DNA of 64,000 nucleotides from positions 62,001-126,000 of the forward strand of contig WACJ01000501.1 of NCBI GenBank assembly GCA_008973525.1, given 5' to 3'. Source of the stretch: Stenopsyche tienmushanensis (lineage: Eukaryota; Arthropoda; Insecta; Trichoptera; Stenopsychidae). Below are positions 16,449-55,071 of the stretch, piece after piece (position 1 is the first letter of the stretch; every line of letters starts with the position of its first letter). The translations under genes and the position numbers were made by a program. A model generated the notes under the pieces. The model was not told the origin of the DNA. It did no database searches and saw nothing but the letters and a program-made list of their open reading frames with translations.

Positions 16449-18765
16449 GAGGTCAACATGCTCAAATGGGCAGTCTCGTCCAAAAGAAATGGCGAACCGC
16501 AGCAACCGGGTCGTCTCTCATTGGATTCGAGTGGCATCACAAAATCGAAAGGACCCAAAAGGCGTTCCTTGGGGGGTCCTTCGTGTCGTCGCAAAAGTCA
16601 ACTTCATGCCCGTCGAATTTTGAACAACAAAGAAAATTTAAATTACATGGCGGGTTGCACCCCTTGTTTTCCACCGAAGGATTTGTTGACCGCAATCAGG
16701 AAGTTCGACATTAATTCGCCTCTCAAGGACGTGAGCAATTTGACGCCGGGGAAAGGACCCACTCCAGCGTCCCCCAGGATAAAAGCAATTTCGACACCAA
16801 AGGCATCTTCCTTCACGATATTTCAATCAGAACCATCGATATCACCGACCAGCGATGTGCACAACGAAGATTTAGACGATTTCAATTCAAATTTAGCCCC
16901 GACGTTTGGAACACCGAAGCAATCCCATCTAAGTCAACAGACGCTCAAGAAAAGAAGAATCATTCTCGAATCCCCCGGAGAGGATATTGAAGCTGTAAGA
17001 TCGATGGATTTTGAAAATATAAACAATTCTAGTCAAATAATAGAAGAAATTATTAACGATGTTCCTAAAATTTATTCACCACTCGATGCATCAATGAATA
17101 GCATCCCTAAAATATGCCTAGAAAAATCGTTCAGCTCCGAAACTAGAAGTGTCATCCATGGTGCTAGTCTACCGACATTTGAAATAGAATATTCTCCTTG
17201 CAAACCAAACGGACCAATTACAAAATTAGAAGCAAAAAGTGTACACCGAAATGATTCCATATCTTTAAGCACATTGCCGGTCATCGGATCGAGGGCCTTT
17301 ATTAAAAATCCTCTATATTTCACCAGCGAAGATCTGCAATCGAACGAATACGTCCTTCCCAGCAAGAAACCCAAAATAGATTTTGCTGATAACTTCAGCA
17401 TGTTGCTGAACAAGATGTCTCCGATGTCCGCATTGAGATTCAACGGCAATAAACAATATCGATCCAAGGTCTGCTCGGAAGTATCTCCTCTCGCTAAAAA
17501 ATTGGCTTCCCTCTGTTTCAACAAAATGAACGCATTATCACCCGAGCAAGTTAAAATATCGACAAACCGACGATTTATGGCATTTAAGGACGATGAAGTA
17601 TCAGCAGAGATGGAGACGAAAGTAATAAGCGAACAAAGTGTCCTCAGTAAGAATTCTTCCATATCGGATTCCAAAATGGGAGACGTGACATTAGAACAAA
17701 TGATAGATGACATCTTAAAGAGCACCAAGAAGGTCAAAAACGCAAGAAGAGTCAAATTAAAAACGCATTGCTTCAATGAAATGCAAGAAAATAAAGCTTC
17801 ACCGGTGAACATCAGCGTTGGTAAAAATTCTTGCAAGAGTCTGGTCGAGAAAGATTGTGATATTAAAATCCCAGAAGGAGATAAGACTTTCATAATATAC
17901 GATTCATTAAATTCCAGCGAGAGAGAAGTTAAAACGCCAGAAAATCGCTTGTTATCAATGTCTCTAGACGACGATCCCAAGGATAAGCCGACGATAACGA
18001 AGAGTCGAAAGCGTTGCTCGTCCGAATGCACCCCGGTCCACAACGTGTCTCTTCCCTGCGATTTCAATTTGAAGCGCCAGAGATGCGTAAGAAGAAAGCG
18101 GTCGCACGTAAGAGAAGAAGGCGAAGTCGTCAACAAATCCGCAGAGAGAGAATCGGGACTCACTCTCAAGACAGGAATACCCAGTCCATTCACGCCGGAC
18201 AATAAGAACTCATTCAAATGCTTCCTTCAAAGCAATTCTTTCAATTCCATCACAGGATATCCTTTCTATTCGGACGTCCATAACAACAGCAAGAACAGCG
18301 ACGCAACGAGTCGATCTTCCATCTATCCGACGCTGGGCATTCCGACAATGGATCGCGGAGTATCAAACAGCAGCGTTATGCTAGGGCAATATTCCAGCGA
18401 AAAGAAACACAAAAACATGTTCGGATTGACATTGGAGTGCGGAATTCCGAGTCCTTCTTCGTTATTCTGCAATAATTTGGCATTGGATTCAGGATTCAGC
18501 ATGAGCAGTCCGATATTGAACGACGATAGCGACGTACAGAAGATGGCCAACGATTCCATAGACGTTCTCAGCGAGCCCGTGACTCCGATTGCTGAATTTC
18601 GCTCATCGCGAAGATGTTTAACATACTCTCCCGACTATGGAAATTACAGCGACGACAGGAAGAGCCATTTCGGAAGGACGAAACGTGGATATCACCAAGC
18701 CGGGATCAGCCACGGGGAAGTGGAGCTGTCGATGCATTGCAAAAACGATCACATCAAAGTACATA
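16449..18765 (+). CDS. RhoGEF gene exon 1 (first coding exon, disordered N-terminus)
   Basis: An acceptor (TTTGCAG, ending 16448) precedes the exon, so an upstream noncoding exon is likely. I chose ATG 16458 because it is the first in-frame Met in the exon and has a good context (AACATG, A at -3). It encodes 769 residues rich in Ser, Asn and basic clusters (KRR, RRKRS) with many SP/TP sites, and no globular domain until the last 18 residues. Those (HGEVELSMHCKNDHIKVH) open a C2 domain. A short motif recurs: GLTLKTGIPSPF, YPTLGIPT and GLTLECGIPSP near residues 565, 624 and 655. The donor is CATA|GTGAGT. The N-terminal part is not assigned to a family. Confidence 0.85.
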
Positions 18766-21700
18766 GTGAGTATAATGTAAATGTCGAACTCGATCCACGA
18801 TCAATTCTTATTTCTATACGGACGACTGCTAAATGGTGGGATTTTCATAAATTTCAGTTGTACGATGTCGCAATCTTCAGAGGCACAGCGGGAGCACTTG
18901 TCACATCAACGCCTATGTTAAGGTATTTATATTTTTGTGTGAAAAATAGCGTGATGATTCGATTATTTTCGCTTTGCACTAAAATTGATTGAGCTCCGAT
19001 GTTATTTCTTCGCGAGGAATTAGATTAACAAATATCTTTGCTTTGGCTGAACTATGACGTCAAAACGATTTCTGACGTCACGAACACCCCTCAATATTTT
19101 AAGGGTGGCGCAACCTTTGTCCGTACGTATTCATGGAGATAAAAATACGATATTTTTAGGATGATGTACAATGTACACAATATTATAAATTATTTGCATG
19201 TTCATACGAATGGAATTCAAATATGGCTTGGAATTTTGCTCTTCAAATTTATTAATGATAAATAGAAATACAAATAGAATTGTACATACAGAAATACATT
19301 TATTGCATTGGATAGGAAGCTTTTTCTTCCCGCCAATAAAGAAAGAAGGCGAGAATCAGCATAATCTGTTGCGCAACGCGTAATTATTAATTTTCTCATA
19401 AACAAAGGCGTGAAACTTTGAGAAGATTTAAGACACAGTTTGGTGATCCTATTCTAAGTAAGACCCAAGCGTTTGATTGGGTCCAGTATTTTAATTCTGT
19501 GCTTGTCATGGTTCCCGAGTTGTTTGATCTGAATTTCCTTTTTGCTTCGGAGGTATTATCTCTAATTATCTCTTTTTTTATTATTTCTGCTGCCCTTTTT
19601 TCCTCCGTCATCCATTTCGGTGTTCTTCTTTCTAGATGGTTCTTGGGCTATTAATTTATCGTACCACAGAAAGGCATCTATCACTTTTTTTTAGTTGTTC
19701 CATTAGTATTCTCCTTTGATCCAAAAATTTAAGTGGGAAGTCTTCTTTAAGATATAGATTTTCCTTGTATTTACCCATTCTTCTAACCATTTCTAATTCT
19801 GTCCCAGCACAAACAAAATTTAGCACATCTTTTATTATTTGTAAAATTTTATTCTGCAATTCATCATAGCCTCTCTGTTCTTCTTTTACTCCGAAGAATA
19901 TAATATTTATTTGGGAAAATCATATTAATCATATTTTCTTGCTCAGAGCTGCTTTCCTTTATTTTTTCATTAATTTTTTTTGTGATTTTGTCTTCAGATT
20001 TTTTAGTGCTTCTTCCGAGTCTTTTTTAATGTCTGCTCTCAATAATTATACTTTAATTTAATTTCTGTTTGTTCGTATGTAATGCGCTGCCATACTGTTG
20101 ATTGAATTGCAATAATACTTCGTCCAATTATTGCTAAAAACTATGCGAGTAACATGGCATAGTTTAATATATAAAAACTAATGTTTGTTTGTCCGTATTT
20201 AATACGCTGTCATAATGTTCATCCGATTGCGATAAAATTTTGTCAACTTATTGTTTACACTTGTAGAAATAATATAAGTATAATAAAAATATTGTTTGTG
20301 TACGTAATTTGTTATGGGAGACGTGACATTGCAACGTATGCCGGGTAATCACTAGTAACTAATACACGTTTACAGCAAAAATCAGAGTTATATTTGAATC
20401 GCCTGCCGTGATCTAAATTATGACCTTAAAAGGTCTTGGATTTTATAGCTACTCACTGCTTCAGATTATTGTTGTATTTTCCATTGATCATGTTTGTACA
20501 TGACTATTAAATCTTTACAAATTTATTGTAAATTATTCAGCAGTATATGGAAAATTACGACTAATTGAAGTTTGGTGGCCAAATTTGAATCAATTAATTC
20601 GATAAATAATCAGCCAATACCCATATGCAAGAGCCGCTCAAAACATCGCTGCTGTGCGTGAGTGTGTACGGGAAACCACAAGGCAGTCAATTTTGAGTCG
20701 TTCTTAGTACTTGGTCTAAATTTTGGCGAAACAATTAAATGTGGTTCTAACAGGACGGTGCAACGTGCCACATACCGTATGCCATGATGGACATTCTGCA
20801 CTAACGATTTGAGATAGTGCGATTTAACGCCTTTGGACTTCTTCCTTTGGAGCTAACTTAAATCGTAGATCTATGCGTATAAATCGCAAATAATTGATAC
20901 AATTAAACCTATAACCCTATACATACAATTGAATTTATAAAGATGTGCGCTTTATGGGCTTATTGCCACTGGTTTGATGTCCCTGAAAAAATCAGGTCAT
21001 GCTGTTTCGATGCCAAAAGGTTACACATGAAGAGGCTTTAATCCCTTTGATGCCCATTAGCTTTCACTTACTATTCACTTTTGTATCAACAGTATTTAGT
21101 ACTGACATTTTCTTTCCAGCATAAAGCCCATGGCAATTCCCATGGGTTGTTTAAACATTAATCGGAATATTGATTTTGTTTAATGAACATGCCGCAAAAC
21201 GTTTCACCGACCTTTTATGCTAATTCCAAATGGAAAAATTAGAGCATTTTATTAACGACATAATACACAACATACTGATTTTCGTATTCAATTAAGGAGT
21301 TCATTAGTGGGTCAACGGAAAGCACGCAAAGCTATTTTCCAACTTTTCTAGGGCACAGTGTTCAGCTTGAACGTGCCATCGTATTCGGATGATAACCAAT
21401 TAATATCAAGTATTTTTGCATTAATAATTAATACATTTTATTTGTTTATTTGAAGGTTTGCGTCGATGGAGTTGGAATATATCAAAGAACACCAGTTCGC
21501 AGGAACAGCAATGAGCCACAATTTGAGCATACGATGTCGTTCCCGTTGACCGACATTTCTGAGAAAAAGTTACAAATATCTGTTTGGCATCGCGATAGAC
21601 AAAAAAGGTGAGTCCTTGTCGAAATGTCGTCTTAAGGATGCGCAATGGGAATAAACAATTTATTATCGGCAGTGTTACAAATTTCTTATGGGAAAACATC

Positions 21701-36700: not shown

Positions 36701-39700
36701 AGAAGTGATCTCATAACGCCTGCGGAACATAAATTACTTTTCCAAAATTGCGAGGAGGTATTGTACCCCTTATTTTTATATTTATACCGACAAATATCTT
36801 CCCCTGTGTTTTGTTTTAATTGAATTCATAATTTCAGCTGTTGAGGTTATCAGAAGACATCCTCGAGCAACTGATCGCCGAAGAAGAAGTTCAATTGCAT
36901 TTAATAGCAAGCGTATATTTAGCAAGATTGCCTACAATAATATCTCTTTATAAGACTTATTGCAATGGTCTCAAAAGAGCAGACTGTGTACTGGTAAGAG
37001 TTAGACTGAAAACATGATTATGACTAGGGAGGTCTTTAATATTACAAACATTAAGTTTGATTTTGGCACTTTTAGGTCCAAAGATCTAGACAAGCAGGTG
37101 GTAACTTCGTAAAAATGTGCACTGAACCTCCAATTCCACGCAGAAGACCAGATGTGACACAATTTGTCCACAAACCGCTAGAACAGTTCAGGGAATTATT
37201 GCGATTACTTAGAGCAGCAAGAGCTGTTGTCCCAACGACGCATCCCGATCATGCAGCCTTGGCAAGATTAGTAAATGACTTACAGGTAATATTGTCAACG
37301 AAACGTTCTTCTAGTATTATTTTAATACTTAATAAATTACAATTTGAATAATATTGCAGACTGCTTATCACGAGATAACAGCAGGCGCCGGGTTGATGGG
37401 TCCATTGGGAGAAGGGAGACCATTACTTTCAGTTGCTGATTTGGAAAGTCGATTAGTCTTTACTAGGTGTAAGGTTAGTAAAAATCGATGACACTTTAAA
37501 AAATAAAATAATTTGGAAAAGTTCATACATTTAAAAACTCTTACAGCCCTTCATCCTATCGAAACCTGGTCGACAATGGATCTTTGGTGGAGATTTAGCA
37601 AGAGTCGAAGGACGAACAGTAAGGCCTTATTGGGCCCTACTATTTAGCGATTTATTGCTCTTTGCCACGGTCTCTAGGGATAGAGTACTTTTCATAACAG
37701 AAGAGCCACTACCAATTGCCAATATAACAGAGACTTGTTTCAACGTTAGGAAAAAAGGTAAGCAAATTAAAAATACTAAGGTGAAATGACTTGCAATTTA
37801 TCACTTATAATGATAGCAATTGATGTGTTTTTCAGCTAATGAATTTCGGTTAGCGGTGGGTCCAGGAAGAGCAAATAGCCCGACGGCGCGATGTGGTCCT
37901 CCAGTCAGAGCAAGGGCACGCACTTTAATATTAAGAGCACCTTCACCAGATCTCAAAGCAGTTTGGCAGAGTCTTCTATTGAGGCAAATGTAAGAAAACA
38001 GTTAAAATTTGATACATACTTAAGATAAAGAAGATAAACCACAAAGTCTCAATACTACGGCAGAATACCCTGTGTGTGTGATAGTGTTGTCATGATTATA
38101 TTGTCTGCCTTTTATGTTATCCTGGCATAAGATCGATATTTTTTTGTTTTGATTTTACTGGATGAGTGAAGAAAAAATGGTGTCAGATCTTGCGTTGAAA
38201 AATCTGCTTTCTTGTATTTTGGGTACAATTGCAGTATTAGTACAGTCAGGGATTATGATTAGTTGGGATTAGAATATTCGTTGGTTCAATTGTATGTTTG
38301 TGACTTTCACTACATGTTAAAAATTATATTTTTCAGATGCAGAGTTAACTCTTCGACTGGAACACCTCTCAGTTCACCGATGGAGTCACCGGCACCCCTC
38401 GGTTGCTACTCCGAAGTGACGTTGGACTCCCAACAGCGGCAGGTATCGTTCGCATCCCTCACTCCGCGTGCTCGTCCTGCACCTCCTTCCGTGAGTCATG
38501 CGGACGCACGACACCATTCTGTCAGCTTCGCCTCCACCGGGGCGGGCTACGACTCAGTCTCCAAGCTTTCCAACCTCACTGCACCCTGTACCAACAGATC
38601 TGTCATAGACGAAGAATACTCCAACCAGTACACCCTCACCTCCCTAGAGCTACTTTCCAACAGAATCAACGACGAACCCCCAGAATCGAATCACAACAAC
38701 AACGAATACTACCAAGACGAACAGAAATTTTTAGCTCCGAACAATATGCAGAACGCTGCCAAGACTCCGGATACGCCGCCGCCGAACGTGTCTCCCGGGG
38801 AGTCCTCTAAAAATTCCCAAACGTTTTCGTCCCATTTCGTATCCATGACTAGCTTAGAGAAGGGAACGTCCGACGACAACTGTTCGCTGCAGAAGCGATT
38901 CATCGGCAACTCGGAGACGCCGTCGTCTCCCAGCGCGATCTTGACCCCGTCGACGACCGATTTCGTATCGGGGCCTTACAGGCACGACTTCGGCGAGGAA
39001 TGTAACGTCGACGATCCTGAACTGTGGGACTCTGACGGTCTGTGCAGATGGGAGTCTTTCGAAGCCGATTTGGCATTAGCTGACATAAACATCGACCTCT
39101 GTTTCAAAACGGACGTCGAAGAAAATATTTACTTTCGAGACGACTATTACATAGCTCGTCGTATGAGCAAACTTCAAGGGAGGTGTCATCCATCCCATTC
39201 GCTAGATCTCTGATCGTCGCGATGTCCATGAAGAACGATGGACTCAGAGGTGCCATTACTAAAGAATAAATTTGCATTTGACTGTTTGATTAAACTAAAA
39301 TTTAATTTATTTGAAAATCATCCCCTTAAGACAATTTAAATTCAGTATAAAACAAAGCCTCAATGTTTGTCTTACATCTCAAATGATTCGTAAAAATAGA
39401 GGAATTATTGAGTTTTTAATGTGATTTTGGAAATTTAAAAATAAAAAGCAACATTAGGGAGTTTAAACTACCTCTTCCATCTTTGACATGCCAAAATTTT
39501 TCAATCGTTTAAAACAAATTTAGGGAAAGAAAGTGAGCATTTTACACACTCGAGCATAATTCTTTTGAATTTCTTAGTGAAGGTATTTTTTTACAAATCT
39601 TTGACGATGATGATTTTTGATGAATACTATTTAAGTCCGGTGGAACTTCAATTTGGCGAAGAAAGGACGCGCTGTCTGTATCGGTCCTGTTGAAAATCCA

Positions 39701-42700: not shown

Positions 42701-45700
42701 ATTTTATTTCCGATAAAAGTCAATCAGAGGATAATTCAAGAGTAGGAAATATAAAATAGTTGTCTTTTCGTGAGTAGTTCTTAGAAATAAAAAGATAGGT
42801 AGCAGCGAGTTGTTATTCTTAAATAGAAAGCTATTCATCCCATTTCTCCCAAACAGATTTAAACCTCATTCGACGAAAATGTTAAGAGCTTATGTTGTTT
42901 TATGTATGCTATTGTACCTGATGAAAAGAAATCATTTCAACACTCGAATAAAAAACATATGGACTTGAGATATTTTCATAAAGTTTTGATTTTAATACTA
43001 TTTTTATATTTTTTTAAATTAACTGGTCATCGTGAGAAGTCTGTTTTTCTACACGTTTCGTTAAATAAAAGTATGCATCACAGATTAAACGATATGATCA
43101 TCTTAGTCGAGCGTTCGTTTTGGAAGAGTTGTTCTTGTGCTAAAATGGGCTTGTCACCGCAGATAGGCGAGACCGCAGACTATGAGGGCTGAGAATGTAT
43201 TTGATATTAATTTCGAAATAAATCTTATATAGTAAATACGGTAAGTTGTTATAGAATAAGTGGATAATTGCGACGCTGATGTCGATCTAATTTTCTTGAA
43301 AAAAAAAAAATCGAATTTGCTTTCTAAGAAAATTGCTTTCTACTTTTTTATAATGATGTGTATCTTCTGTATACTTTTTTTAAAAACTATACCACTTTTC
43401 TTTAATTTCCGTAACGACATTAGTTTTAGAAAAAATCTTACTTTATACGTACACAAAATTTCATGAATACACTTTTTTTTAAACAATTTTTAAAAATGAT
43501 TTCATGTTGGAATCCATCGTTAGCATCGCAAATATTCACAAATTCTACAAATTAAAAAAAGAACACAAATTTCTTGTGTTTTTTAACGACTTTGTCATAA
43601 TTCTTGTAAACACATGTTGCTAAATAACTGTATTGTGTGTAATTAACTGTTTTGAAAAAAATATTTTTAAAAGAGGAAAATAAATCTATTTCTTTTTACA
43701 AACAATGTGTTTCATTTTTACCTTCTTCAACAAAATACATCACAATAACTATAGTTTGGAGACCATTATATTTGCGATACTAGCGATAAATTCACACATG
43801 ATGATAAATCAATTAGAGTGATTAACAAATTAAAAAAAAATCTTATAAAGAACCAATTTTATTTTTATATGAACAAAAATCACGGCGCTAATAAGACTAC
43901 ACAGTTACGGAGCCCCGTTAAATAAACAAAATCAATTATATTTTTATTATTACTTAACATCATGACGATTCAATTCAATCTTCTATCTAAGAGATCAGTG
44001 CGTTACCTACAGATTTACAAACGAACAAACACTGTAAATATTTTAAATATGCGCTAAGAAAAATATTTGATTCAAATATACATTTATTTATCGAAACAAG
44101 GTTATCAATCTTCCCGAAGTCATCACCGAAGAAGGTACAAGATCTTCAAGACTGGTTTGCAAAGGAGCCGCTCTTCATTTGGCAAGATGGATGAAAACTC
44201 ATCCGGGGAGTGGATCCATTCCGCCAGAACCGGAACCCGAGGTATGTTAATATACATTTTATTTATTTACACTTCTGACACCAATGTAACGTGGGGGAGC
44301 GATACACACGCAAAAAGCGATATGTGCCGTTCTTTCAGACGCGTTCGCAACTCCACAGCATATGACGACACATTGCGTCTAAAGAGAGACGGAAGATATC
44401 TCTGTTAATCTGTATAGATTAACAGCGCTATTACGTGGAGGTGACATTTCGCCCACGCTACACTGGAATTGTTTTTTTCATCAAACGCTTGAGTAATTTG
44501 ACTGTCCTTCTAGATTTGGAGCACAGAGCAATTGCGAAAGAGATCAAAAGAGCTTAGGTTGCTGGATGTAGAACAGCTCGTCCCCAAGACATCGACAGCA
44601 ACTCAAATAACATTGGAGAAGTCTCCATCGGAAAATGATCATAGTCCGTCCCGTAGCACTAATTCAGATAGTCAAGTAAGTTTGAATTGTGATCAAGCCC
44701 TCTGTTTATAGGTAAATCCGTCACTGTAAATAGGTACTATATGTGTGGAGATGAATTTGTAAAATTTGTAGGGAGCTAACATTTTAGTGACGACCTGTCT
44801 AAATGGGAACTACTCTCGTGGACTCCCATTTATATTTCAAGCACCGCCCATTGTTTTTTCACTGACATGGACCCCTTGCAGATCAGAATTGACTCCTGGG
44901 GATTGATTTGAGAATGACTGATATAGACGGATGAAACCCTTTGGTATGAATGTATATTGAAGAGGCCCTAGTCTGTCTGTTCTCTAAGCCATCTTTGATT
45001 GATATAACCTAAATATTACATATAATCAAACTTTCTAAAAGATGTTCGAATGGTCGGAGGGTGGAATGTTTGCATGTCAATCAAGGTCTTTGTAGAACTT
45101 TAGCTTATATGATTAACGAGTAGGAATATTTTTGTTGTAGATCACAGTCAGATCCAGTCCAGTAGTACCCGAGACAGTATCCGTATGTCGACAGTGCCAC
45201 AAACGTTGCTTTTCCAAACCCAGCAGTCCTCTAGTGACTTCGTCGACCAAATCGACAGGATTAGCTGAAAAGCTGAGTAATTCGTATGCGTCGGATAACG
45301 ATACTCCACAAAAGAACCACATTTCCTGCCAAAAGAAAGAAGAGGAAGTGAAAACCTGCACCGAAAAGTGTTCAAGTCCAATTTTCGACACAGAGAGTAA
45401 ATCGAGCAAGTCGCCTGAAAAGAAGAATGCATTACAGACGATGTCCGAAATCAGATCCGCAATAATTAGAAGTAGGGAATCATTTTTTAAAAGCTCCGAA
45501 TCTAAGGAGGGGGGTTCGAGTCCTCTGAACAGGGCGTCGCCGAGAAGTCCCTGCTCTCAAAAGAGCGACAGTTCGCATTCCACCTTGTACAGCACTAACA
45601 GCCCTCTGTCTTACGCCCACACCACTTGCAGCTCCATAGCCTTGAGCAATTCCACCGGGAAGAAGTCTCTGAGTCCCGGAAGAGACTCGATCGCTTCGGG

Positions 45701-48700
45701 CGGCAGCAACGAAGAGACCGTCCAGTGCGTCATCGCCCAAGAAAAGTACCTAAACGAAGTGAAGTGCGTCGAGAACATCGTCCTGTCCAAGGGGAGTCCC
45801 TTTCGTTCTAGATTAAGAGAACCCAATAAAATATACATGGGAAAAACAATAGTGGAAAGAAATTCTAGTGCCTCAAAGAATCTAAATAAATCGATAGCTA
45901 GTGAATCGTCCTCTTATAGTATTGATAAAGTGATAAACTCTACGACTTCGATAAACGCCGACTTTTTCCCTAGTGCCATAAAAACGTCCATCAACGGCGA
46001 TCTCAGAAAGGACAACCCGTCCATAGATTGCGGGAGATCGGATTTCTCATGGGGACCATTGATGCTAATGGGTGAGCATCGTCGGTCGAGGACCTACGCT
46101 CGACAGACGAGCAATCTCCGACTGACTGCGTTTCAATTCCAGGGTTATCGGCCATCAACCCGGCAGCTCACCTGATGCAGCTGGACTCTCAGAGCCGCCA
46201 GCCGTCTCCGAGAACAGTACCGCGAAGCTCTCCACAAAAAATGGTGCCAAATATTTCTGTGGTTCCTCCAACGCCAGATTTCAAAAGCGAAACTAAAAAT
46301 TTACTACCTGTATGCCCCCACATATTTTTATTAAAAGATAATCTCAGCCTCTGGGTTTTACTACGTTTATTATTTCTTTTTCGAAATCTTCATATTTCAA
46401 GCCTTATAAATATATACAAATGACTTTAGCATCGCATTAACGATTAAATATATGAAAATTTCAGCAACACACATTAGAAGACTCTCCAGACGATTCGCCC
46501 ATAGCTGAAGAGCCGCCATATTTAGCATTAAAAAGGTACTGGACATACACATGAGATTTTTTTTTTTTGTTAGAGACTTTTTGAAAAATCTTTTGCGTTT
46601 TGACAGATATGGTACAATGTCCAGCTTAGAACGACTTCCTTCAGACGAAATGGACGATGCTCAGCTAAATTCAATTATTGAGCCGCAAGAAAAAGGTGAG
46701 CTACCAGATTTCATCCGATCATCTAATGGTTAAATAATATTCTGATTACATTTTTTTTCATGCAGAGACTGAAATATCCCAGGGAATTTTGGGCTGGACG
46801 ACACGGGCTGGGAATTATGTTGCCGAAAAAATGGCAATGCTAAATAGTTTAGCCGAATCAGGCGCAGCGTCTACGGGTGCATCGTTCCTAGAAAGGTAGT
46901 TTTCTTTTATTATTAAAATGGAAATAATTTTGTGACTGTGTACTACAATTCTTGTTACTTCAAGTGGCAGTTTGTCGAAAGAGAGGGAGAATCGTTTGTA
47001 CTCTCTCTGTCTCTTTCGCACACGCATGTGCATAGACAAGTTACGAACATGCGCTGCGCTGCCTCTACTGTCACTGAACGTAGCATTGAGCATACACTTT
47101 TTGCCAACTATCCAAAGCCAATAAGTACCTTGGAAAGAAATAGAATGTATCAAGTCAGGCAAATTACAAAAAATGTTAACAAATGAAAAAAAAAACAATG
47201 CATAAAGTCAACTTTTCCTAGGAGCTAAGAAATTTTACTTCTTTAGTACTCACATGATTTTTTTTTATAGATACCTTGGTGCCGGGGAATGGAGAACAGT
47301 TCGAGGAGTTACCGGAATCGAAAACGAAGGCGGGGAAGGTTCCGGAGCATCGGGGGAAGAAGCATGGGGTACTCCTTCATCTGGAGATCTGAGCGACCAT
47401 GCTTTTCCCGATTCAGATCACGCCACATTATCAGTAATTCAAAAATATATAAACTTATAGATTCAAAAGTAAAATGCAATGATAACTTATAATACGCGTA
47501 TTCCAGTCACCTACTAAGTCATCATCGTCTTGTCCCGGCGACGAAGACACCGAATTGATGATGGACGAACTGTTGATGACTCCGCCCATAGCGGGACCGT
47601 CGTTGCGGCCTTTGCTTCCCAGACTACTGACGTAATTTCATTATGTTGTATTTTTTTGAATTACATGCAATATTAAACAGCAATATAACCGAAGGACGAC
47701 GACGGTTTCCAGGAGACGATTGGAGCCGTTGATGGAGGAAGAAGGTTCGGACGCTTCGTCCACGAGCAGCGCGGAGGCGGCTTCGGAGGTCACGCCCAGT
47801 CCGACCGATCAGGTAATCTTGAGTCTGATGACAATCAATTTTGAATTGAATTACTTACTTGTCCGAAAACTAACGTTAGCGATTTTAAAAGAAGGTCTTT
47901 GTTTGTGTAGGCTCACACGAGAGCCGACAAGCAAAGATTTTCAAATAAATTATTTTTAATATATTTAAGTAATTATTGTTAGACATATGAACGTATTGTA
48001 TAGAGCTGGGGTCGACAAACGAGCATAAAAAGTTGCCAAGTCAGCAAATTAGAAACATAGACGTAATGTCGTTGGAAGCGGGAGGGATATGTAATTCACA
48101 ATCGAAGGTGTGCATTCACTCTCTCATATATTCCCTTAGCCATTGTTATAAACCTGTCTTGCAACAAAAACACTCACTAAAAATATGATAGGCTCGCTTA
48201 GGGACGACGACTGTCGACCGAAACCCCATCGTCGTTGACGCGGGAGAAGCGTTGTAGTCTTCGTTAGACGGTGTCAGAAGTAGGCGCAGAGCCTCCCCGC
48301 CTGCTTTCCTTCGTCTCCCGAGCCGAAGCGGGCTTTGAGAAAAATCGTGAAGTGTGTCGACTCCGGCTGTACGGTGGAGGGCCTTGCATTATTTTGATCG
48401 ATCAAGTATCGAGTAAAGAGATCGACAGTACCGCTCTTTTCGAAACGGGCGAGCGCGCTAGAGAAAAGAGCGGTAGGACAACGGTAGGGTTTAGTAACAT
48501 AGCGGCATGCCGTGTCGGTGTGCGTCGGTGTCGCCGGCAGGGCAGCGGCGCGGCTGGCGGTGTTGCTGACCCGCGGCCCCCCGAGGCTCTTCCCGGCCCC
48601 CCGCCCAGCCCCGACCGCACGCCCACCAACCCCCGACCGCCCCCAGGCCTTCCCGGACCCGTCTCGCTGCTGCGTGAGTATTCCCTCGCGTCCGTTTCGC

Positions 48701-51275
48701 TCAGTGACAGCTTTGCACTTTTATTCAATAACAATGAAACCATTTTATTATTTTGTAGTACACGTTGGCAGTAGATTTTGAATCGTCACGTCGACTTCGG
48801 CGTTCTATTTGCGATCTTTGGGAGAAAATAAAGCCTCGGCGTTCAGTATCGTAGGTTAAACGTTCGGAAGTAGTGACGTAAATGGAACGCGCAGGTAGAC
48901 GTGTATCCCGCGATTGCTTGTATTTGAGTAGATGTGCAGATCGGTGTTGTTCGGAAAGGTCGCTCGCAGGTAGACCCTCTCGAGAGCGCCGATCGCATGA
49001 TGCCGACGCACACTCACACTGCAACGGATGCCTTTGTTGTTGATCTTTTATTTTTGCTGGTATTCGCGCGAGGACGCAACGAGGCCAGCGTCGAATGTAG
49101 TCTTACGTGTGCGCAGTATTAAGAGGCTCGCCGGAGCGAGGGTCGGACGGCAGAAGCGCGTCGAGCTCGACGCTGGAGGGGTGCCGTTCCGCGCCGGACG
49201 GCAGCGAAGACTCGGAGTCCTGCGGGAGCGGAGCCGCTGGGGGAGAGCCTGCTGGCGACGTCTCTGTCGCTGGAGCCGGTGCAGCCGCGGGGGGCAGACT
49301 CAGCCCGCGCATGGAGATGCGCCTGGCCCTTCAGGAGGGTACGGACATATTGGCGGAGCACGAGCAGCGCTGGGTAACGACCTCTCCGCCCGGGAGTCTG
49401 TCCGATTCCGCGGTGTCAGATCGCATTCGGACGATAGATTCCGGGGCGTCTCTCATTCCGTAGTCTCTCACTCAATTCCATAAACTTACGTTCGTGTCGA
49501 TGCAGGATCAAGTGAGCGCCCGCTGCGGGTGGGTGCGCCGTCCTCTGTGCCCGCCTCCGCGAACCCGCCTTCCCGCAGGGCTCCCAAGTACTACTTTGAG
49601 CAATTCTGCGTCTGCACCAGCAGGTACGTTCGATCGGATGCGATCGCCTGACACTTTTATCGAACGACTCTAACGATTTTTTTCTGACGGTCAGGCCAGG
49701 TCAAGGTGTCGGCGATGGAGCGGCTCGCCCTCTTGGAGGCCAGGGGCGCACGTCGAGGGACGCGCCGTCCGCGTCCGACGGCTAGGCTGTAAGTTACCGT
49801 CATCCACCAGCCATCCACCAGCCACCCACCCAGACTATCCCGGGACCGTGTCAGTTGTCCCTCCATTTGTCCATTCGTAGTGTTAGATCAAAATTGAGTA
49901 TTTATTTAACATTTAGATAAAATCCGAATTTATCCACGGTGATAAAATCGACGAACGTCATATGCTTGCTGAACTACTGTTGTTACGAGGGTCATCTAGA
50001 ATATGTAAGGTTAAAAGTCCTCCTGAGGTCGGATGATTTTTTGTTTGTTTCGAAGTTGACGCTCCTGTCGTGTAGGTGGAATCCTAAGGTCAGTTTGTTT
50101 GGCCCTGTGTGTTTGTCGGCCATTTTGTTCAGTCACAGTAAATTCTTACGACATAGGTCATCACGCATTCCCACCACTTCCAAAATCGCATAGCTGCCGC
50201 GCGTGAATTTTTGGATCGTTTTACACAGGAAGGATAAGCTTATCTTGACTATCGTAATGGGGGATGGGGCGCGAGTGTGTCATTACACTCCAGAATCTAC
50301 AAAAGATAGTGCCCTGACTACAGAAATGACTCGATCTTATTTCTGAGCTTTTAGTCACATAAAATGTGCAAACGAATGAGAGATATCAACTTTTAAATCC
50401 TTTAAACAAAAAACTAACAACTATTTTGAACTTAGTTTAGTTTTAAAAAGTGCGCGGGACGTGCCCTATTTCGTGGCTCACACGGTTACCAGACCTGATA
50501 CCACTGGATTTCTTTGCTTGGGGACATTCTCCACTCTGTGGCTCGCATGGTTTTTGGACCTGACACCACTGGATTTCTTTGTCTGAGGATGTGCAAAATA
50601 ATTCATTTGCAAAAATTAAAGTGTTTATATTGAATATTACCCGTTGGGTGAGCGTTCGAAATAAAACTCGGTGGTAATGCTACCTTCAATATCGAGCGAA
50701 TGAGGAGGTGAATGTATGACACAAGCGAAATGGATGTAACCCATTGAATGGATATTGAAGAGGCCCATAGTTCTGTAGTGGACTTTCAGTGGCTGCACTA
50801 TGATGATGATATTGAATATGAAATTCACAGGATACTTCACAAATATTTGTGAATTTTTAAAAAAACCAGCATTTTTTGATCCTACATAAATGTTGTAACT
50901 TTACTTTCTGGATGACTCTTGTACCAACCATTTGTTACCAATGTATAAGTTCTCATTGTTGGATATGTTTAAAATAGTCATATGTTTATTTTTCTTCATA
51001 TCATAACATTTCAATTAAATAGCATAGTCAGTATATGATTAAGAAAATAAAATATTTTATTAAAAAGTCAGTGGTTAAAATCAAAATGATTCATTTGCTT
51101 ATTCGGATTTCATATATAAGAGTATACAAGTGTTTTCCTCCGCAGGATGGGTCTGGTGAGACGGCGAGCGTCTTCCGACAGCCCCGAGAGACGACCGTAC
51201 TCTCCCCGTCGACAGCAGCAGCATGTGAGCAGTCACGGATATTACAAGATTTGCTTTGTCAATGGCTTTGTATAA
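16458..51275 (+). CDS. Large C2-PDZ-RhoGEF(DH)-PH protein, 29 coding exons, 2671 aa
   Basis: Predicted Dbl-family guanine-nucleotide exchange factor for Rho-type GTPases. Exons: 16449-18765, 18858-18922, 21456-21607, 30556-30797, 32152-32311, 32692-32877, 33823-34054, 36548-36757, 36838-36993, 37076-37285, 37360-37473, 37547-37757, 37836-37989, 38337-39182, 44142-44241, 44514-44675, 45141-46071, 46143-46309, 46465-46535, 46607-46695, 46766-46895, 47271-47433, 47507-47631, 47713-47812, 48541-48673, 49117-49373, 49506-49623, 49695-49788, 51146-51275. Every junction is GT-AG, phases agree throughout, and the sum is 8016 nt. Approximate residues: disordered 1-750, C2 752-868, PDZ 976-1050, DH 1125-1330, PH 1346-1467, Ser/Pro-rich tail to 2671. 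The C2 and PDZ suggest membrane or junction targeting (inference). Weakest junctions are exon 14 to 15 and exon 23 to 24. I do not recognise the exact orthologue, so no symbol is given. Any upstream untranslated exon was not found. Confidence 0.85.
18858..18922 (+). CDS. RhoGEF exon 2 (C2 domain, strands 2-3)
   Basis: The acceptor is ATTTCAG and the donor AAG|GTATTT. The exon encodes VRCRNLQRHSGSTCHINAYV, matching the C2 pattern in which an R-A-R-x-L strand precedes an x-Y-V-K strand. At the usual DPYVK position the Asp-Pro is replaced by His-Ile-Asn-Ala, so calcium coordination by this loop is doubtful. Confidence 0.85.
19195..19420 (+). repeat. Dispersed repeat family B (copy 3)
   Basis: Contains GGAATTTTGCTCTTCAAATT, CTGTTGCGCAACGCGTAATT and TTTTCTCATAAACAAAGGCG, matching 61500-61650. 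It abuts the retrotransposon ORF1 remnant on its right. Confidence 0.6.
19380..20040 (-). mobile_element. Non-LTR retrotransposon ORF1-like remnant
   Basis: The minus-strand frame from about 19908 to 19660 reads INIIFFGVKEEQRGYDELQN, then MVRRMGKYKENLYLKEDFPL, then DQRRILMEQLKK. The pattern N-x-I-I-F-x-G-V, V-R-R-x-G, Y-x-K-E-D-F-P is typical of proteins encoded upstream of the RT in many insect non-LTR elements. Stops break the frame on both sides, so it is decayed. It lies in the intron between exons 2 and 3 of the RhoGEF gene, antisense to it. Confidence 0.7.
20050..20420 (-). repeat. Dispersed repeat family C (inverted copy)
   Basis: Minus-strand equivalents of the GGTATGACAGCGTATT segment appear twice (near 20085 and 20205). 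The 5' motif (ACTAGTGATTACCCGGCATA on the minus strand) sits near 20342-20361. Same internal duplication as the 5029 copy. Confidence 0.55.
21456..21607 (+). CDS. RhoGEF exon 3 (C2 domain, central strands)
   Basis: The exon is in phase 0 after a TTTGAAG acceptor and ends AAAAAG|GTGAGT in phase 2. It encodes the C2 core: YQRTPVRRNSNEPQFEHTMS, then FPLTDISEKKLQISVWHRDR. The N-x-P-x-F and L-x-I-S-V-W-x-x-D patterns are typical of C2 domains. The exon is isolated in a long intronic stretch; it was found because its phase and domain content fill the gap between exons 2 and 4. Confidence 0.85.
23480..23620 (-). repeat. LTR fragment (family L)
   Basis: GATTTATTTATTCATCACGA, then GGAAGGACGTCTTCCCGCAG, then CTCCCACATCCTACGCGTCA. 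It matches the central part of the LTR at 30937-31219 base by base with substitutions. Confidence 0.6.
24583..24620 (-). repeat. LTR primer-binding site and LTR edge (family L)
   Basis: TCCCACTTCTGACACCA equals the 3' end of tRNA-Leu including CCA, that is, the PBS read on the minus strand. It is followed by TGTA. The adjoining LTR is not recognisable for more than a few bases. Confidence 0.5.
25000..25680. promoter_or_regulatory. CpG-rich island, possible alternative promoter
   Basis: Very GC- and CpG-rich against an AT-rich background, preceded by a 7-bp tandem repeat (GAGGAGT, about four units, 25052-25082). Long frames on both strands are low-complexity Arg/Pro/His products of base composition. 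It lies in intron 3, upstream of the PDZ-DH-PH exons. A short-isoform promoter with an untranslated first exon (donors such as CACAAAG|GTATCA) would fit, but this is inference. Confidence 0.45.
27600..28065 (-). mobile_element. R1-like LINE, 3' end of ORF2 (decayed)
   Basis: Minus-strand pieces in order: IPPIDLLAKESHTHRG, EWQSRWDSSAKSRWTHWLIP and LTQALAGHDCFGAQ. After a frame change comes CRHCGAEMDDAAHMLFDCPAW. The W-Q-x-x-W-D ... R-W-T-x-x-L-I-P ... CxxC-x-H-x-F-x-C-P pattern is the C-terminal region of R1-clade elements. One stop and at least one frameshift show it is dead. Confidence 0.8.
28115..28195 (-). repeat. tRNA-derived SINE-like sequence
   Basis: The minus strand has a Pol III B box (GGGTTCGAATCC, 28135-28146). 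Upstream is an anticodon-arm-like GACTCGTAACTCAGTC and an A-box-like TAGTCCCGCGTTAAACGG. The cloverleaf is not good enough for a functional tRNA. Confidence 0.5.
29375..29515 (+). repeat. Dispersed repeat family F (copy 1)
   Basis: TCGGCCATTTATTTCAGTCA followed by CAGTAAATTCTTTCGATGCA and CTCCTACCACCT. It matches 50095-50180. Confidence 0.6.
30113..30141. repeat. Perfect 12-bp hairpin
   Basis: AATGGCGAAACT, a 5-nt loop, then AGTTTCGCCATT. It lies about 440 bp before exon 4. Confidence 0.85.
30194..30306. repeat. Three palindromic TGACGGATATATCCG motifs
   Basis: Copies at 30194-30213 (ATGACGTATATATCCGTCAT), 30238-30253 and 30291-30306. Spacing is about 44 and 53 bp. Each is a near-palindrome centred on GATATATC. 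Confidence 0.8.
30556..30797 (+). CDS. RhoGEF exon 4 (C2 end and linker)
   Basis: The acceptor is TGGTTGCAG. The exon encodes RSEFLGCISLPLSHAAKKEV then SGSWSLF, the last two C2 strands (the FLG and G-x-W motifs). A Pro/Arg/Ala-rich linker follows. It is noticeably more GC-rich than the flanking introns and ends GAAATTG|GTAAAT, phase 1. Confidence 0.85.
30923..31219 (-). repeat. Family L LTR with primer-binding site
   Basis: ACTTCTGACACCAA (PBS complement, 30923-30936) is followed by a TG...CA-type LTR from TGTAGCGTGG (30937) to CCTACGCTACA (31219), 283 bp. No internal retroviral-type coding sequence adjoins. It sits in the intron between exons 4 and 5. Confidence 0.65.
32152..32311 (+). CDS. 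RhoGEF exon 5 (linker between C2 and PDZ)
   Basis: The acceptor is TTTGTTTAAG and the donor AGAAG|GTATAA. The exon encodes a polar segment (QQREADEHLFLRYLELDP) and then a basic Ala/Gly stretch leading straight into the PDZ domain. No known domain is seen here. Confidence 0.8.
32692..32877 (+). CDS. RhoGEF exon 6 (PDZ domain)
   Basis: The acceptor is TTTTTCAG and the donor ATTAA|GTAAGT. The exon encodes most of a PDZ domain. The carboxylate-binding loop is GFGF (in SDQGFGFSVVW), followed by the conserved GRAAERAGLLPGDYIVFVD core and the final helix (SQVLTLIK). PDZ domains usually bind C-terminal peptides of membrane or scaffold partners. Confidence 0.93.
   Translation, partial: TSTDVRSGIWIFRGVDKAPEGGTSRGRTSCRTSWTLARRLYRFCGQTQRGHNAGVASAHPH
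33823..34054 (+). CDS. RhoGEF exon 7 (PDZ end and linker)
   Basis: The acceptor is TTTTTTCCAG and the donor GGGAG|GTGGGT. The first residues (TSGPQLLLETF) form the last PDZ strand. A GC-rich Pro/Arg/Ser linker with possible SH3-type PxxP stretches (PPVPRRRP) follows. The exon ends in phase 0. Confidence 0.85.
34593..34733. mobile_element. Non-autonomous hAT element (MITE) with 8-bp target duplication
   Basis: CTTACAGT occurs at 34593-34600 and again at 34726-34733. The 125-bp insert begins CGGGGCTTCGAACCG and ends CGGTACGAAGCCCTG, inverted repeats matching at 13 of 15 positions. An 8-bp duplication with CAGGG-type ends is the hAT signature. The inside is CGGTTT-rich. It lies in the intron between exons 7 and 8. 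Confidence 0.85.
36548..36757 (+). CDS. RhoGEF exon 8 (start of DH domain)
   Basis: The exon encodes a Gly/Ser-rich lead-in and then the first DH helix region: HAVVLREQQYAAWMQFGMER. It continues through LITPAEHKLLFQNCEE, equivalent to the conserved I-F-x-N-x-E-E segment of DH domains. It is phase 0 at both ends (AATTGTAG acceptor, GAGGAG|GTATTG donor). Confidence 0.9.
36838..36993 (+). CDS. RhoGEF exon 9 (DH domain)
   Basis: The exon is phase 0 at both ends. It encodes helical DH sequence: LLRLSEDILEQLIAEEEVQL, then the conserved SLYKTYCNGLKRA stretch (compare the family's x-Y-x-x-Y-C pattern). Confidence 0.92.
37076..37285 (+). CDS. RhoGEF exon 10 (DH domain, atypical catalytic helix)
   Basis: The exon is phase 0 at both ends. 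It includes FVHKPLEQFRELLRLLRA at the place where Dbl proteins usually have KPVQRLPRYxLLL. K and P are kept, but the Arg-Leu-x-Arg-Tyr part is not. TTHPDHAALARLVNDLQ corresponds to the family's T-P-x-x-H-P-D-x-x-x-L helix. Confidence 0.9.
37360..37473 (+). CDS. RhoGEF exon 11 (DH-PH junction)
   Basis: The exon is phase 0 at both ends. It encodes the end of the last DH helix (TAYHEITAGAG) and the linker to the PH domain (ADLESRLVFTRCK). Confidence 0.88.
37547..37757 (+). CDS. RhoGEF exon 12 (PH domain, N-terminal half)
   Basis: The exon encodes the first PH strands: PGRQWIFGGDLARVEG, then RPYWALLFSDLLLFATVSRD. The L-F-S-D-L-L-L-F core is typical of the PH domain that follows DH domains. It ends AAAAAAG|GTAAGC, phase 1. 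Confidence 0.93.
37836..37989 (+). CDS. RhoGEF exon 13 (PH domain, C-terminal half)
   Basis: The exon encodes the last PH strands and the closing helix (PDLKAVWQSLLLRQM), with the Trp conserved in nearly all PH domains. The donor is CAAAT|GTAAGA; the exon 14 junction completes an Ile codon. Confidence 0.9.
38337..39213 (+). CDS. RhoGEF exon 14 (tail; stop inside or spliced on at 39182)
   Basis: Long Ser/Pro/Asn-rich exon after an ATTTTTCAG acceptor, ending with an acidic block (DPELWDSDGLCRWESFEADL). Two endings are possible. The frame reaches its own TGA at 39211-39213 (last residues CHPSHSLDL), giving a roughly 1758-residue isoform. Or a donor at 39182|39183 (GGGAG|GTGTCA, phase 2) joins exon 15 at 44142. 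I favour both occurring, because the downstream exons form a long phase-consistent series. Confidence 0.8.
39711..40545. mobile_element. 835-bp element with perfect 18-bp terminal inverted repeats
   Basis: CCCTAGATCACTAATCAT at 39711-39728 is exactly inverted at 40528-40545. No clear target duplication and no transposase frame. The inner right end (AGTCTGTGAGATTAATGATT) recurs as dispersed ends near 10380, 10440, 56040 and 57953. Confidence 0.7.
41918..42060 (-). repeat. Family L LTR edge with primer-binding site
   Basis: TCCCACTTCTGACACCAA precedes TGTTATTTGGCTAAGCGGGG. Further right, CAGCCATGGGTATCCGAAGA and CTCGACTCCCACTTCCTTAC resemble the 31140-31185 part of the 283-bp LTR. The far end is replaced by another repeat. 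Confidence 0.5.
42090..42610 (+). repeat. Copy of the interior of the 39711-40545 element
   Basis: Shares, in order, CATACAGGAAACGGCTACAG, GGTACTACGAATGACCGA, AGTATCATGGGGAAGGGGGA and ACACAGCAGCGCGGGACATA with 39990-40365. The TIRs are missing here. Confidence 0.65.
44142..44241 (+). CDS. RhoGEF exon 15 (tail)
   Basis: The frame is fixed by phase 0 joining to exon 16: SSRLVCKGAALHLARWMKTH, then a Pro/Glu stretch, donor CCCGAG|GTATGT. The acceptor is uncertain. A site after GGTACAAG (exon from 44142) matches the phase of the 39182 donor. Another site at 44100/44101 keeps the frame open but would need a phase 0 partner that I did not find. Confidence 0.65.
44270..44462 (-). repeat. Family L LTR with primer-binding site inside a 272-nt intron
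   Basis: CACTTCTGACACCAA, then TGTAACGTGGGGGAGCG to CGCCCACGCTACA (178-bp LTR, 44285-44462). It includes a hairpin, CTGTTAATC-TGTATA-GATTAACAG. It fills most of the intron between exons 15 and 16. Confidence 0.7.
44514..44675 (+). CDS. RhoGEF exon 16 (tail)
   Basis: The exon is phase 0 at both ends, from a CCTTCTAG acceptor to a GTCAA|GTAAGT donor. It begins IWSTEQLRKRSKELRLLDVE, a charged, probably helical segment, and then becomes Ser/Thr-rich. The 272-nt intron before it is mostly an LTR insertion (44285-44462). Confidence 0.82.
45141..46071 (+). CDS. RhoGEF exon 17 (tail, CxxC segment)
   Basis: The exon is 931 nt, from a TTGTTGTAG acceptor to an AATGG|GTGAGC donor. Near the start is CRQCHKRCF, a small Cys cluster (CxxCxxxC) that could bind a metal, although no full zinc-finger pattern is visible. 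The rest is Ser-rich and disordered with many SP sites (SPRSPC, SLSPGRDS), and a possible short helix (EKYLNEVKCVENIVL). Confidence 0.85.
46143..46695 (+). CDS. RhoGEF exons 18-20 (tail)
   Basis: Three exons (46143-46309, 46465-46535, 46607-46695) with matching phases 2, 0 and 1. They encode INPAAHLMQLDSQSRQPSPR, an acidic EDSPDDSPIAEEPPYLALK stretch, and RYGTMSSLERLPSDEMDDAQ. The acidic SP-rich segments look like kinase target regions (inference). Confidence 0.82.
46766..47433 (+). CDS. RhoGEF exons 21-22 (tail, conserved-looking helix)
   Basis: Two exons (46766-46895, 47271-47433). The first encodes ISQGILGWTTRAGNYVAEKM with a short hydrophobic continuation (AMLNSLAESG). This is the most ordered-looking segment of the tail and may be an amphipathic helix. 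The second encodes YLGAGEWRTVRGV and then a Gly/Glu-rich acidic stretch. Confidence 0.82.
47507..47812 (+). CDS. RhoGEF exons 23-24 (tail)
   Basis: Exon 23 (47507-47631) is Ser-rich, then acidic (DEDTELMMDELLMTPP). Its reading frame would stop one codon after the proposed donor (CTGAC|GTAATT), so an isoform ending here is possible. Exon 24 (47713-47812) encodes RRLEPLMEEEGSDASSTSSA and ends CAG|GTAATC in phase 0. The exon 24 acceptor (TTTCCAG, ending 47712) was chosen over one at 47679 because only it restores phase. Confidence 0.72.
48541..48673 (+). CDS. RhoGEF exon 25 (Pro/Gly-rich tail)
   Basis: GC-rich exon between a GCCGGCAG acceptor and a strong CTGC|GTGAGT donor. It encodes a Gly/Ala segment and a Pro-rich run (PGPPPSPDRTP), possibly an SH3 or WW ligand. 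It is phase 0 at the start and phase 1 at the end, fitting both neighbours. Confidence 0.75.
49117..49373 (+). CDS. RhoGEF exon 26 (tail, helical end)
   Basis: The acceptor is GTGCGCAG and the donor GCGCTGG|GTAACG. The exon encodes Ser/Gly/Ala-rich sequence ending in a likely helix, RMEMRLALQEGTDILAEHEQ. If intron 26 were retained, the frame would run to a stop at 49461-49463. Confidence 0.78.
49506..49788 (+). CDS. RhoGEF exons 27-28 (tail)
   Basis: Two small exons (49506-49623, 49695-49788). The phase-consistent frame gives DQVSARCGWVRRPL ... SASAPAG and then QVKVSAMERLALLEARGARR. Exon 28 has a strong donor (GGCT|GTAAGT) whose own T-A-A would be an in-frame stop if unspliced, so a slightly shorter form is possible. 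Another frame of exon 27 is also open but breaks phase with both neighbours. Confidence 0.7.
50060..50190 (+). repeat. Dispersed repeat family F (copy 2)
   Basis: TCGGCCATTTTGTTCAGTCA followed by CAGTAAATTCTTACGACATA and ATTCCCACCACTT, in the same order as copy 1. Lies in the last RhoGEF intron. Confidence 0.6.
50470..50600 (+). mobile_element. Mariner-type transposase fragment, tandemly duplicated and decayed
   Basis: 50472-50530 translates as WLTRLPDLIPLDFFAWGH, matching the W-P-P-x-S-P-D-L-x-P-x-D-x-F-L-W-G motif around the third catalytic acidic residue of mariner/Tc1 transposases. 50541-50590 repeats it as WLAWFLDLTPLDFFV followed by a stop. Only this short motif is preserved. Lies in the last RhoGEF intron. 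Confidence 0.7.
51146..51275 (+). CDS. RhoGEF exon 29 (terminal coding exon)
   Basis: The acceptor is TCCTCCGCAG. The first base completes a Leu codon left by exon 28, giving MGLVRRRASSDSPERRPYSP, a Gln/His stretch, and the end YYKICFVNGFV before TAA at 51273-51275. An RRRASSDSP site resembles a basophilic-kinase or 14-3-3 target. A longer open frame (to 51403) covers the same bases but is out of phase with exon 28. Confidence 0.7.
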
Positions 51276-53395: not shown

Positions 53396-55071
53396 GAAAA
53401 ATACGGTTTTAATAACGAAATTATGTTTTTAAATTCATTTTTATAAAATCTGGAGTTTAAGAATTATGAAACCGAACAATATAATAACAAAAATCAAATT
53501 TTTTCAAATAATATACTACTTATATTCTGAAATCTTATAGTAATATCACAATTAAAATAAAACAAAAAATGCTTAAATTAAAAATAATAATTTATTGCTA
53601 TGTCGCTGTAAATTATTAAGTTATCTCACTTCGGTGATACATCGGGGAAATGTTTTTTTATGTAATAAAATAAATTTAAATGAAGACAACGAGTTGCCCA
53701 GCTTACTTAGAAACGTTCCAATATAGATATTATACCACAATGCAAAATTAAAAAAATTCCATTAATATAAATGGAATTACACCCAAAAAAAAACAAGATT
53801 TATTTTTTTAAATTTGTTTAAATAGATTATTTTGCACTTTTAAATATTGAATGTTAACTGTAAGACTTGTCCATGAATCAGATGATAGATTTGCATTTAT
53901 TAAACTGTTATTTATACAGCGCAGACTTTCCAAATGTTTTAAAATCGATACGACGTTGAAATAACCGCAGCGATTTTAAGACATAAATAAAATAGCATTT
54001 ATTCACTGCGTTAAATCATTATTTGAACAAAGATAAGCAACAAATTGAATGATCCGAAGAGGGATTAAGATCTGATTAAACACGTCTTACAAAATAGACG
54101 CTGACAAATCAGTTTTTATTTCGTTTTAATCCGATTAACAGATTGCATAACATAAGATTTATTGAGGTTTTAATTTAATAGCCGATAATACGCATCGCAA
54201 TAAATGTTTGTTTTAACCGTTAGTTTCTGTTGGTTGCGGCATTTCAGGAAAAGCAACTGGACAGGCGATTTTGGAAGCAGCTGAGAAGAAGATCCAGTGG
54301 AAATATACCGAATATACCCGCATAAGTATTGAAATATCAAATTTATCATATATTTAGCCGTGACAAAAGATTTGTTTTGAAATCATCGTCGGTATAAATA
54401 CACGCGGTAAAGACTCGACTGACTATATATTTTTAATAATTAGAATTTGTGAAGCGATCACAATGTAAAGATGTAATAAATGTACGGCGAGGATGTAATG
54501 TTTGTTATAGCGTTTCCGCTTTATTTTAAAACGGCGAGAAATCAATTCAATATAAATTAGTAACGATGATTAGACGAATCGACGAAATAATTTGGATAGT
54601 CGCGGATGAAATGTTTTTTTTTAATAATATAAGATCTCGTTAATTTCATGCCAAAAGATATCCATTATAATAAAATTAGGTATTAACGACGATACCATTT
54701 TTTAAAAATTGGCACAACAAGTTTCACTTTTTTGAGGCCAATTTTAATCTAAATTATTCGATAATTATGAACTATTTTAAATGTCTCAATGTGATGTTTG
54801 AATATTTGAACGGTCTACCACTATTAAAGCCGTCCTAAGCGATATTTCAAAGATGCTAAAAGCTCTATTAATCAATTACTCTCTTTAGTTTTAATCTAAA
54901 TATTTAAATCAAAGTGGTGCTGCTAACTCTGTAAATAATAAGATTAAAAATATAAACGTTTGCCAATTTACAAACGGCCGTAATATTTTGACAACGTATT
55001 TTAGACGTATTTCAGCCGCAGGTAAAAGAGTGTCATTTCAGTTCTTATTCAATCTATATAGCGGAAATTAC

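What the first reader, a model, noticed from the sequence alone, without database searches (positions are those of the whole stretch)
16458..51275. Unusual C2-PDZ-DH-PH architecture with about 2000 disordered residues
Seen: the three C2 exons, the PDZ core, DH helices and PH core join in one phase-consistent series of 29 exons. Known: C2 plus PDZ occurs in some signalling scaffolds (for example RGS3-type proteins), and PDZ plus DH-PH occurs in PDZ-RhoGEFs, where an RGS-like domain lies between them. Here C2 takes the place of RGS. I do not recall a well-described protein with this order, so it may be an under-described RhoGEF class.
Basis: partly seen in the sequence, partly recalled or inferred. 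Interest (0 to 1): 0.75.

Follow-up and report, generated by a model that had tools for sequence, protein, structure and literature searches.

The report
Known insect Rac activator gene, PsGEF
This is the insect version of an already described signalling gene (PsGEF, needed for correct wiring of a fly memory centre), so the domain order that looked new was published in 2009, although the gene's far end was read wrongly and a few of its features may be unreported.

Summary
The exon chain is real. Fourteen phase-consistent exons joined at GT-AG introns (16458-39182) encode 1746 residues with Pfam C2, PDZ and RhoGEF domains in that order. Pfam misses the PH domain, but an AlphaFold2 model of an orthologue shows it and matches solved DH/PH tandems. 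The class is not under-described: it is PsGEF, protostome-specific GEF, reported in 2009 for Drosophila, Tribolium, Apis, Pediculus and limpet, with a sequenced long fly cDNA (PMC2684095). Searches returned orthologues from many insect orders, some bearing that name. My long model has 30 exons and 2549 residues. Small leads: the C2 lacks canonical calcium-binding aspartates, against the published calcium proposal, and a krill fragment keeps a PsGEF-type DH domain thought lost in crustaceans.

The parts
16458..18765 (+). exon 1: start codon, long N-terminal region with DUF4799, first strand of C2
   Evidence: tblastn of P0001 residues 1-790 onto 16458-18764
18858..18922 (+). exon 2: C2
21456..21607 (+). 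exon 3: C2
30556..30797 (+). exon 4: end of C2 and linker
32152..32311 (+). exon 5: conserved linker before PDZ
32692..32877 (+). exon 6: PDZ core
33823..34054 (+). exon 7: end of PDZ and linker; no tblastn hit of its own
   Evidence: splice phase; Pfam PDZ_6 match runs to residue 1051, into this exon
36548..36757 (+). exon 8: DH
36838..36993 (+). exon 9: DH
37076..37285 (+). exon 10: DH
37360..37473 (+). exon 11: DH-PH junction
37547..37757 (+). exon 12: PH
   Evidence: orthologue fold
37836..37989 (+). exon 13: end of PH with C-terminal helix
38343..38442 (+). exon 14, short form, spliced onward in long isoforms (SQQRQ|gtatcg)
38343..39213 (+). exon 14, long form: alternative last exon with its own stop (1756-aa isoform); AATAAA at 39265
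   Evidence: part after 38460 matches 14 of 120 orthologues at E<1e-3
44101..44241 (+). exon 15: HLxxWM motif exon (5' end uncertain)
   Evidence: 38 of 120 orthologues at E<1e-3
44514..44675 (+). exon 16
45141..46071 (+). exon 17: serine-rich tail
46143..46309 (+). exon 18
46465..46535 (+). exon 19
   Evidence: tblastn of P0117
46607..46695 (+). exon 20 (GTMSSLER motif)
46766..46895 (+). exon 21
47271..47433 (+). exon 22
47507..47631 (+). exon 23 (DTELMMDELLM motif)
47713..47812 (+). exon 24 (RRLEPL motif)
48268..48673 (+). exon 25, uncertain: no tblastn hit; only SPDRTPTN resembles SPERTPTN of P0001 by eye
   Evidence: gene-finding script
49117..49412 (+). exon 26 (LSPRxEMRLAL motif), boundaries uncertain
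49506..49623 (+). exon 27, frame uncertain, no tblastn hit
   Evidence: script only
49695..49788 (+). exon 28, no tblastn hit
   Evidence: script with a motif anchor chosen by eye
51146..51224 (+). exon 29 (RRRASSDSP motif)
   Evidence: the exon read to 51272 matches 30 of 120 orthologues at E<1e-3
   Evidence: 13 of 16 residues identical to the end of P0065, the only one of 165 proteins scanned with this ending
54248..54325 (+). exon 30: conserved basic C-terminus EKQLDRRFWKQLRRR...IPA and stop
   Evidence: 56 of 120 orthologues at E<1e-3; tblastn of P0030 and P0076

Best explanation
The gene is the orthologue of PsGEF (Drosophila CG14045), a Dbl-family exchange factor. Shown here: C2-PDZ-DH-PH order, orthology, and several homology-supported ends. 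Shown in the fly by others: the gene interacts genetically with Rac1 and not with the other Rho members tested, its RhoGEF domain drives membrane ruffling in HeLa cells, and loss disturbs alpha/beta axon branching in mushroom bodies. Inferred: the DH-PH tandem loads Rac with GTP at the membrane; C2 and PDZ place the protein at membrane or partner sites; the long tails are regulatory and differ by alternative last exons or splicing. The C2 probably acts without calcium.
For: Pfam domains. Closest proteins are insect PsGEFs, including Drosophila melanogaster 'Protostome-specific GEF, isoform F' (P0117) and others so named. P0117 aligns at 38% identity over 1131 columns. Anchor motifs occur in the order C2-PDZ-DH-PH in 79 of 210 fetched proteins; 120 others carry only some of the motifs, none in another order; 11 carry none. 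DH-PH fold of an orthologue. Fly genetics, ruffling assay and sequenced long cDNA (abstract, passages and section 14 read).
Against: No transcript from this organism was available, so isoforms rest on homology and splice signals. Exons 25, 27 and 28 and the 5' end of exon 15 are weak. Rac specificity is known for the fly only, by genetics and cell shape; no purified exchange assay was seen in the parts read. [quoted passage not shown]
Confidence: 0.97

Rival explanations
1. An under-described or new RhoGEF class in which C2 replaces the RGS-like domain.
For: The order differs from PDZ-RhoGEF and from RGS3 (recalled); no RGS-type family found by Pfam.
Against: The same order, in the same orthologous gene, was described as PsGEF in 2009 and is present in the insect orthologues found.
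Confidence: 0.02
2. Two neighbouring genes, a C2-PDZ gene and a DH-PH gene, wrongly joined.
For: The fly does make a short C2-PDZ mRNA. Daphnia was reported to have only C2-PDZ, with a separate neighbouring gene for a PH-like protein.
Against: Phase-consistent junction 34054/36548. Single predicted proteins with all four parts are found in many insects. A long fly cDNA was isolated and sequenced.
Confidence: 0.02
3. The C2 is a calcium switch that brings the GEF to the membrane when calcium rises, as proposed by Higuchi and colleagues.
For: C2 domains of the PKC and synaptotagmin type often work this way (recalled). One acidic loop-3 position is kept: D in 90 of the 95 sequences below.
Against: In 95 of 95 PsGEF C2 sequences caught by a pattern (of 210 fetched), the position of the aspartate in SDPYVK is N and the first aspartate of WDxD is H; the window protein reads the same, INAYVK and WHRDR. 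The ligand motifs are recalled from PKC and synaptotagmin, not taken from a call.
Confidence: 0.15

Closest known systems
PsGEF (protostome-specific GEF, Drosophila CG14045; PMC2684095)
   Same: C2, PDZ and RhoGEF in that order, orthologous sequence in the domains and in parts of both tails, several isoforms. The fly database protein P0117 (2738 aa) is of similar length to the long model here.
   Different: The paper describes proteins of 786 and 1493 aa. The phrase 'PH domain' has 0 occurrences in it; PH is mentioned for Sif and as PH-like for a Daphnia neighbour gene. The C-terminal alternatives are not described in the parts that I read.
RGS3, long form with C2 and PDZ
   Same: Nearest solved relative of the C2 (3fbk); its PDZ (1whd, 2f5y) is matched by the PsGEF profile.
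   Different: Has an RGS domain and no DH-PH (recalled; the lack of RGS in PsGEF is stated). With the window sequence alone, the PDZ hits listed are ARHGEF11 and Shank1, not RGS3.
PDZ-RhoGEF / ARHGEF11
   Same: PDZ before DH-PH; close structural match of the DH-PH tandem (1xcg, 5jhg) and a weak sequence match of the PDZ (5tyt).
   Different: An RGS-like domain lies between PDZ and DH (recalled) and RhoA complexes were solved; the window has C2 before PDZ and no RGS hit.
Intersectin DH-PH
   Same: Best sequence match of the DH-PH among solved structures (3qbv, 1ki1).
   Different: Different accessory domains (recalled); Cdc42 complexes were solved (titles).

Membership tests
PsGEF | C2, PDZ, RhoGEF in this order | tested here: met
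PsGEF | sequence orthology to insect PsGEF in and outside the domains | tested here: met
   PDZ, DH and PH match 120 of 120, C2 114 of 120, C-tail 102 of 120, N-terminal part 62 of 120 at E<1e-3; no tree was built
PsGEF | short C2-PDZ isoform by early polyadenylation | tested here: inconclusive
   read-through of exon 7 stops soon after (ORF to 34075), but no AATAAA or ATTAAA within 400 bases
PsGEF | shared intron position inside C2 | not tested
   not aligned to the published positions
PsGEF | Rac-selective exchange, mushroom-body role | not testable with these tools
   known in the fly only
Dbl-family RhoGEF | DH domain followed by a PH fold | tested here: met
PDZ-RhoGEF (ARHGEF11 type) | RGS-like domain between PDZ and DH | tested here: not met
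   no RGS-type family at E up to 1 in the 1746-aa product; about 75 residues between PDZ and DH (boundaries set)
RGS3 | RGS domain | tested here: not met
   for the first 1746 residues; the later tail was not scanned
RGS3 | C2 followed by PDZ of RGS3 type | tested here: met
   C2; PDZ (profile); the window PDZ alone did not list RGS3

The most novel reading that the evidence does not exclude
PsGEF is a calcium-blind C2-PDZ-DH-PH scaffold whose output is set by a conserved choice of ends: an early tail ending in LDL or LEL, a long tail with a basic RFWKQ C-terminus, and a read-through C-terminus (KICFVNGFV). Its DH domain survives in malacostracan crustaceans, so the published tie between the RhoGEF exons and mushroom bodies, and the published calcium mechanism, would both need revision.
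Probability: 0.45. Interest if true: 0.35.

Novelty: already known. Interest (0 to 1): 0.15.

Why it matters
It settles that the apparent new RhoGEF class is a published, widely conserved insect gene, and it corrects the gene's end and isoforms. The side results make two published ideas about PsGEF testable: calcium control through C2, and loss of the RhoGEF exons in crustaceans in step with mushroom bodies.

Tried and rejected
CG43658 was searched first from recall as a possible fly match. The passages call it a Rho GEF but do not give its domains, and the homology search led to PsGEF instead, so it was dropped.

A first automatic gene model with strict splice thresholds skipped most domain exons and was discarded. 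A second, looser one added exons that none of five orthologues matched by tblastn (20614, 23765, 25094, 26847, 27685, 28609, 29461, 40327, 41969, 42261); these were left out. A third put 38566-39182 and 41949-42127 into the long form; these were also left out of the models.

Pfam did not find PH in the window protein; PH_13 appears for 1 of 5 DH-PH segments at E 0.016. PH was then tested by structure.

FoldIndex did not separate domains from tails (C2 -0.03, C-tail 0.03) and is not used as evidence for disorder.

Papers: PMC2684095 read as abstract, found passages and section 14; PMC3484668, PMC4682101, PMC7128011, PMC11722539 and PMC11356449 as found passages; others only as search listings. 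Whether the alternative ends, the calcium point and the krill DH are in print was not searched for directly. I only did not see them in those passages; the PsGEF searches were for PsGEF, protostome-specific GEF, CG14045 and C2-PDZ with RhoGEF in an open-access library.

The species was not identified. The best identities over C2 to PH are to Lepidoptera (about 49-53%) against 49% for Tribolium, so a lineage near but outside the moths listed is only a guess.

Full report
What was claimed.

Is it there? Yes in substance. Reading the frames and splice sites gave 14 exons from 16458 to 39182. All 13 introns between them have GT-AG ends, the phases agree, and the 1746-residue product has no internal stop. 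Pfam finds DUF4799 (residues 198-562), C2 (766-866), PDZ (979-1046) and RhoGEF (1145-1312), each above its curated cut-off. No PH family was reported. Against solved structures, the C2 is nearest RGS3 and the DH part nearest intersectin.

What is it? The protein search over C2 to PH returned 233 proteins at E<=0.001. The 120 listed are, by their names, insect proteins, several named 'protostome-specific GEF' or PsGEF, including the Drosophila melanogaster protein P0117; the other 113 were not shown. A second search from a stick insect (198 hits, 120 listed) added Orthoptera, thrips, lice, mayflies, a damselfly and more Hemiptera. Among 210 fetched proteins, 79 show motif anchors of all four domains in the order C2-PDZ-DH-PH. 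Another 120 show only some of the anchors, none out of order, and 11 show none. The architecture was published in 2009 as PsGEF (PMC2684095). The fly gene makes a 786-aa C2-PDZ protein and a 1493-aa C2-PDZ-RhoGEF protein. [quoted passage not shown] The gene interacts with Rac1 and not with the other Rho members tested, its RhoGEF domain causes ruffling in HeLa cells, and loss disturbs mushroom-body axons. Later papers use it as a known gene, and one finds it dispensable for border cell migration.

Where does it end? Tblastn of Tribolium (P0030) and Periplaneta (P0076) proteins places the C-terminus at about 54242-54322. The exon 54248-54325 encodes EKQLDRRFWKQLRRRSSGNIPNIPA and matches 56 of 120 orthologues at E<1e-3. 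It joins in phase to exon 51146-51224. The read-through ends in KICFVNGFV, and 13 of 16 residues equal the end of one moth model, P0065, the only one of 165 proteins scanned with that ending. P0065 is a model fused to a retrotransposon peptidase, so its end may itself be a gene-finder read-through. Still, such identity in an intron is unexpected. A third end lies at 39211-39213. The sequence before it matches the ends of Ostrinia, Brenthis and Anopheles proteins (14 of 120 at E<1e-3) and an AATAAA follows at 39265. My long model has 30 exons and 2549 residues, the read-through form 2540, the early form 1756. Exons 25, 27 and 28 had no homology support and are uncertain, as is the 5' end of exon 15.

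How does it work? The catalytic step, Rac loading by DH-PH, is inferred for this species from the fly. Targeting by C2 and PDZ is inferred. The published idea that calcium recruits the protein through C2 looks doubtful. In 95 of 95 C2 sequences caught by a pattern among 210 fetched, the SDPYVK aspartate position is N and the first aspartate of WDxD is H; the second is D in 90 of 95. The window protein reads INAYVK and WHRDR. In the printed alignment, RGS3 keeps the D of its DPYVK, where the window has HINAYVK. The pattern required E or D before the FLG motif, so nothing is claimed for that site. The ligand motifs are recalled.

A second published idea is that the RhoGEF exons were lost in crustaceans, judged from Daphnia. 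A profile search with five DH-PH segments returned 45 proteins. One, P0205, is a 210-aa partial protein from the krill Meganyctiphanes norvegica at E 3.4e-41. It aligns with the fly PsGEF DH at 33% over 212 columns. It was not compared with other krill RhoGEFs, and no C2 or PDZ is seen on the fragment. If it is PsGEF, loss in Daphnia does not stand for all crustaceans. A spider study found no clear PsGEF homologue (PMC7128011).

Verdict. The claim of a new class is not supported: this is PsGEF, already known. Interest is low, with minor leads.

Noticed in passing
window 59742-60059, - strand: An ORF contains TGWFGGIFNKLSLKPKNQMILPDDKNPSVSFDP, which resembles the C-terminal region of Sec16 (recalled motif; ORF), so a Sec16 gene may lie next door on the other strand.
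   Followed up: no
window 27604-28037, - strand: ORFs that look like the end of a non-LTR retrotransposon reverse transcriptase (recalled resemblance), inside the large intron between exons 3 and 4.
   Followed up: no
P0205 (210 aa, Meganyctiphanes norvegica): A krill DH fragment of PsGEF type, against the published view that crustaceans lost the RhoGEF exons.
   Followed up: partly
window exons 1-4 (C2, 18713-30797) and 95 orthologues: Two calcium-ligand positions of the C2 are N and H instead of D in all 95 orthologues matched by the pattern and in the window.
   Followed up: partly
window 37547-37989: The PH stretch, unnamed by Pfam, is more conserved than the catalytic DH (median 68% against 50%).
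   Followed up: yes
window 5147-5395, 14633-14760, 62255-62382: A dispersed 128-base repeat, four copies, the other three at 62-85% identity to the reference copy, with inverted copies near 20055-20155.
   Followed up: no
window 51225-51275: In-frame read-through of a 5' splice site with a C-terminus shared with the moth Phthorimaea (P0065).
   Followed up: partly
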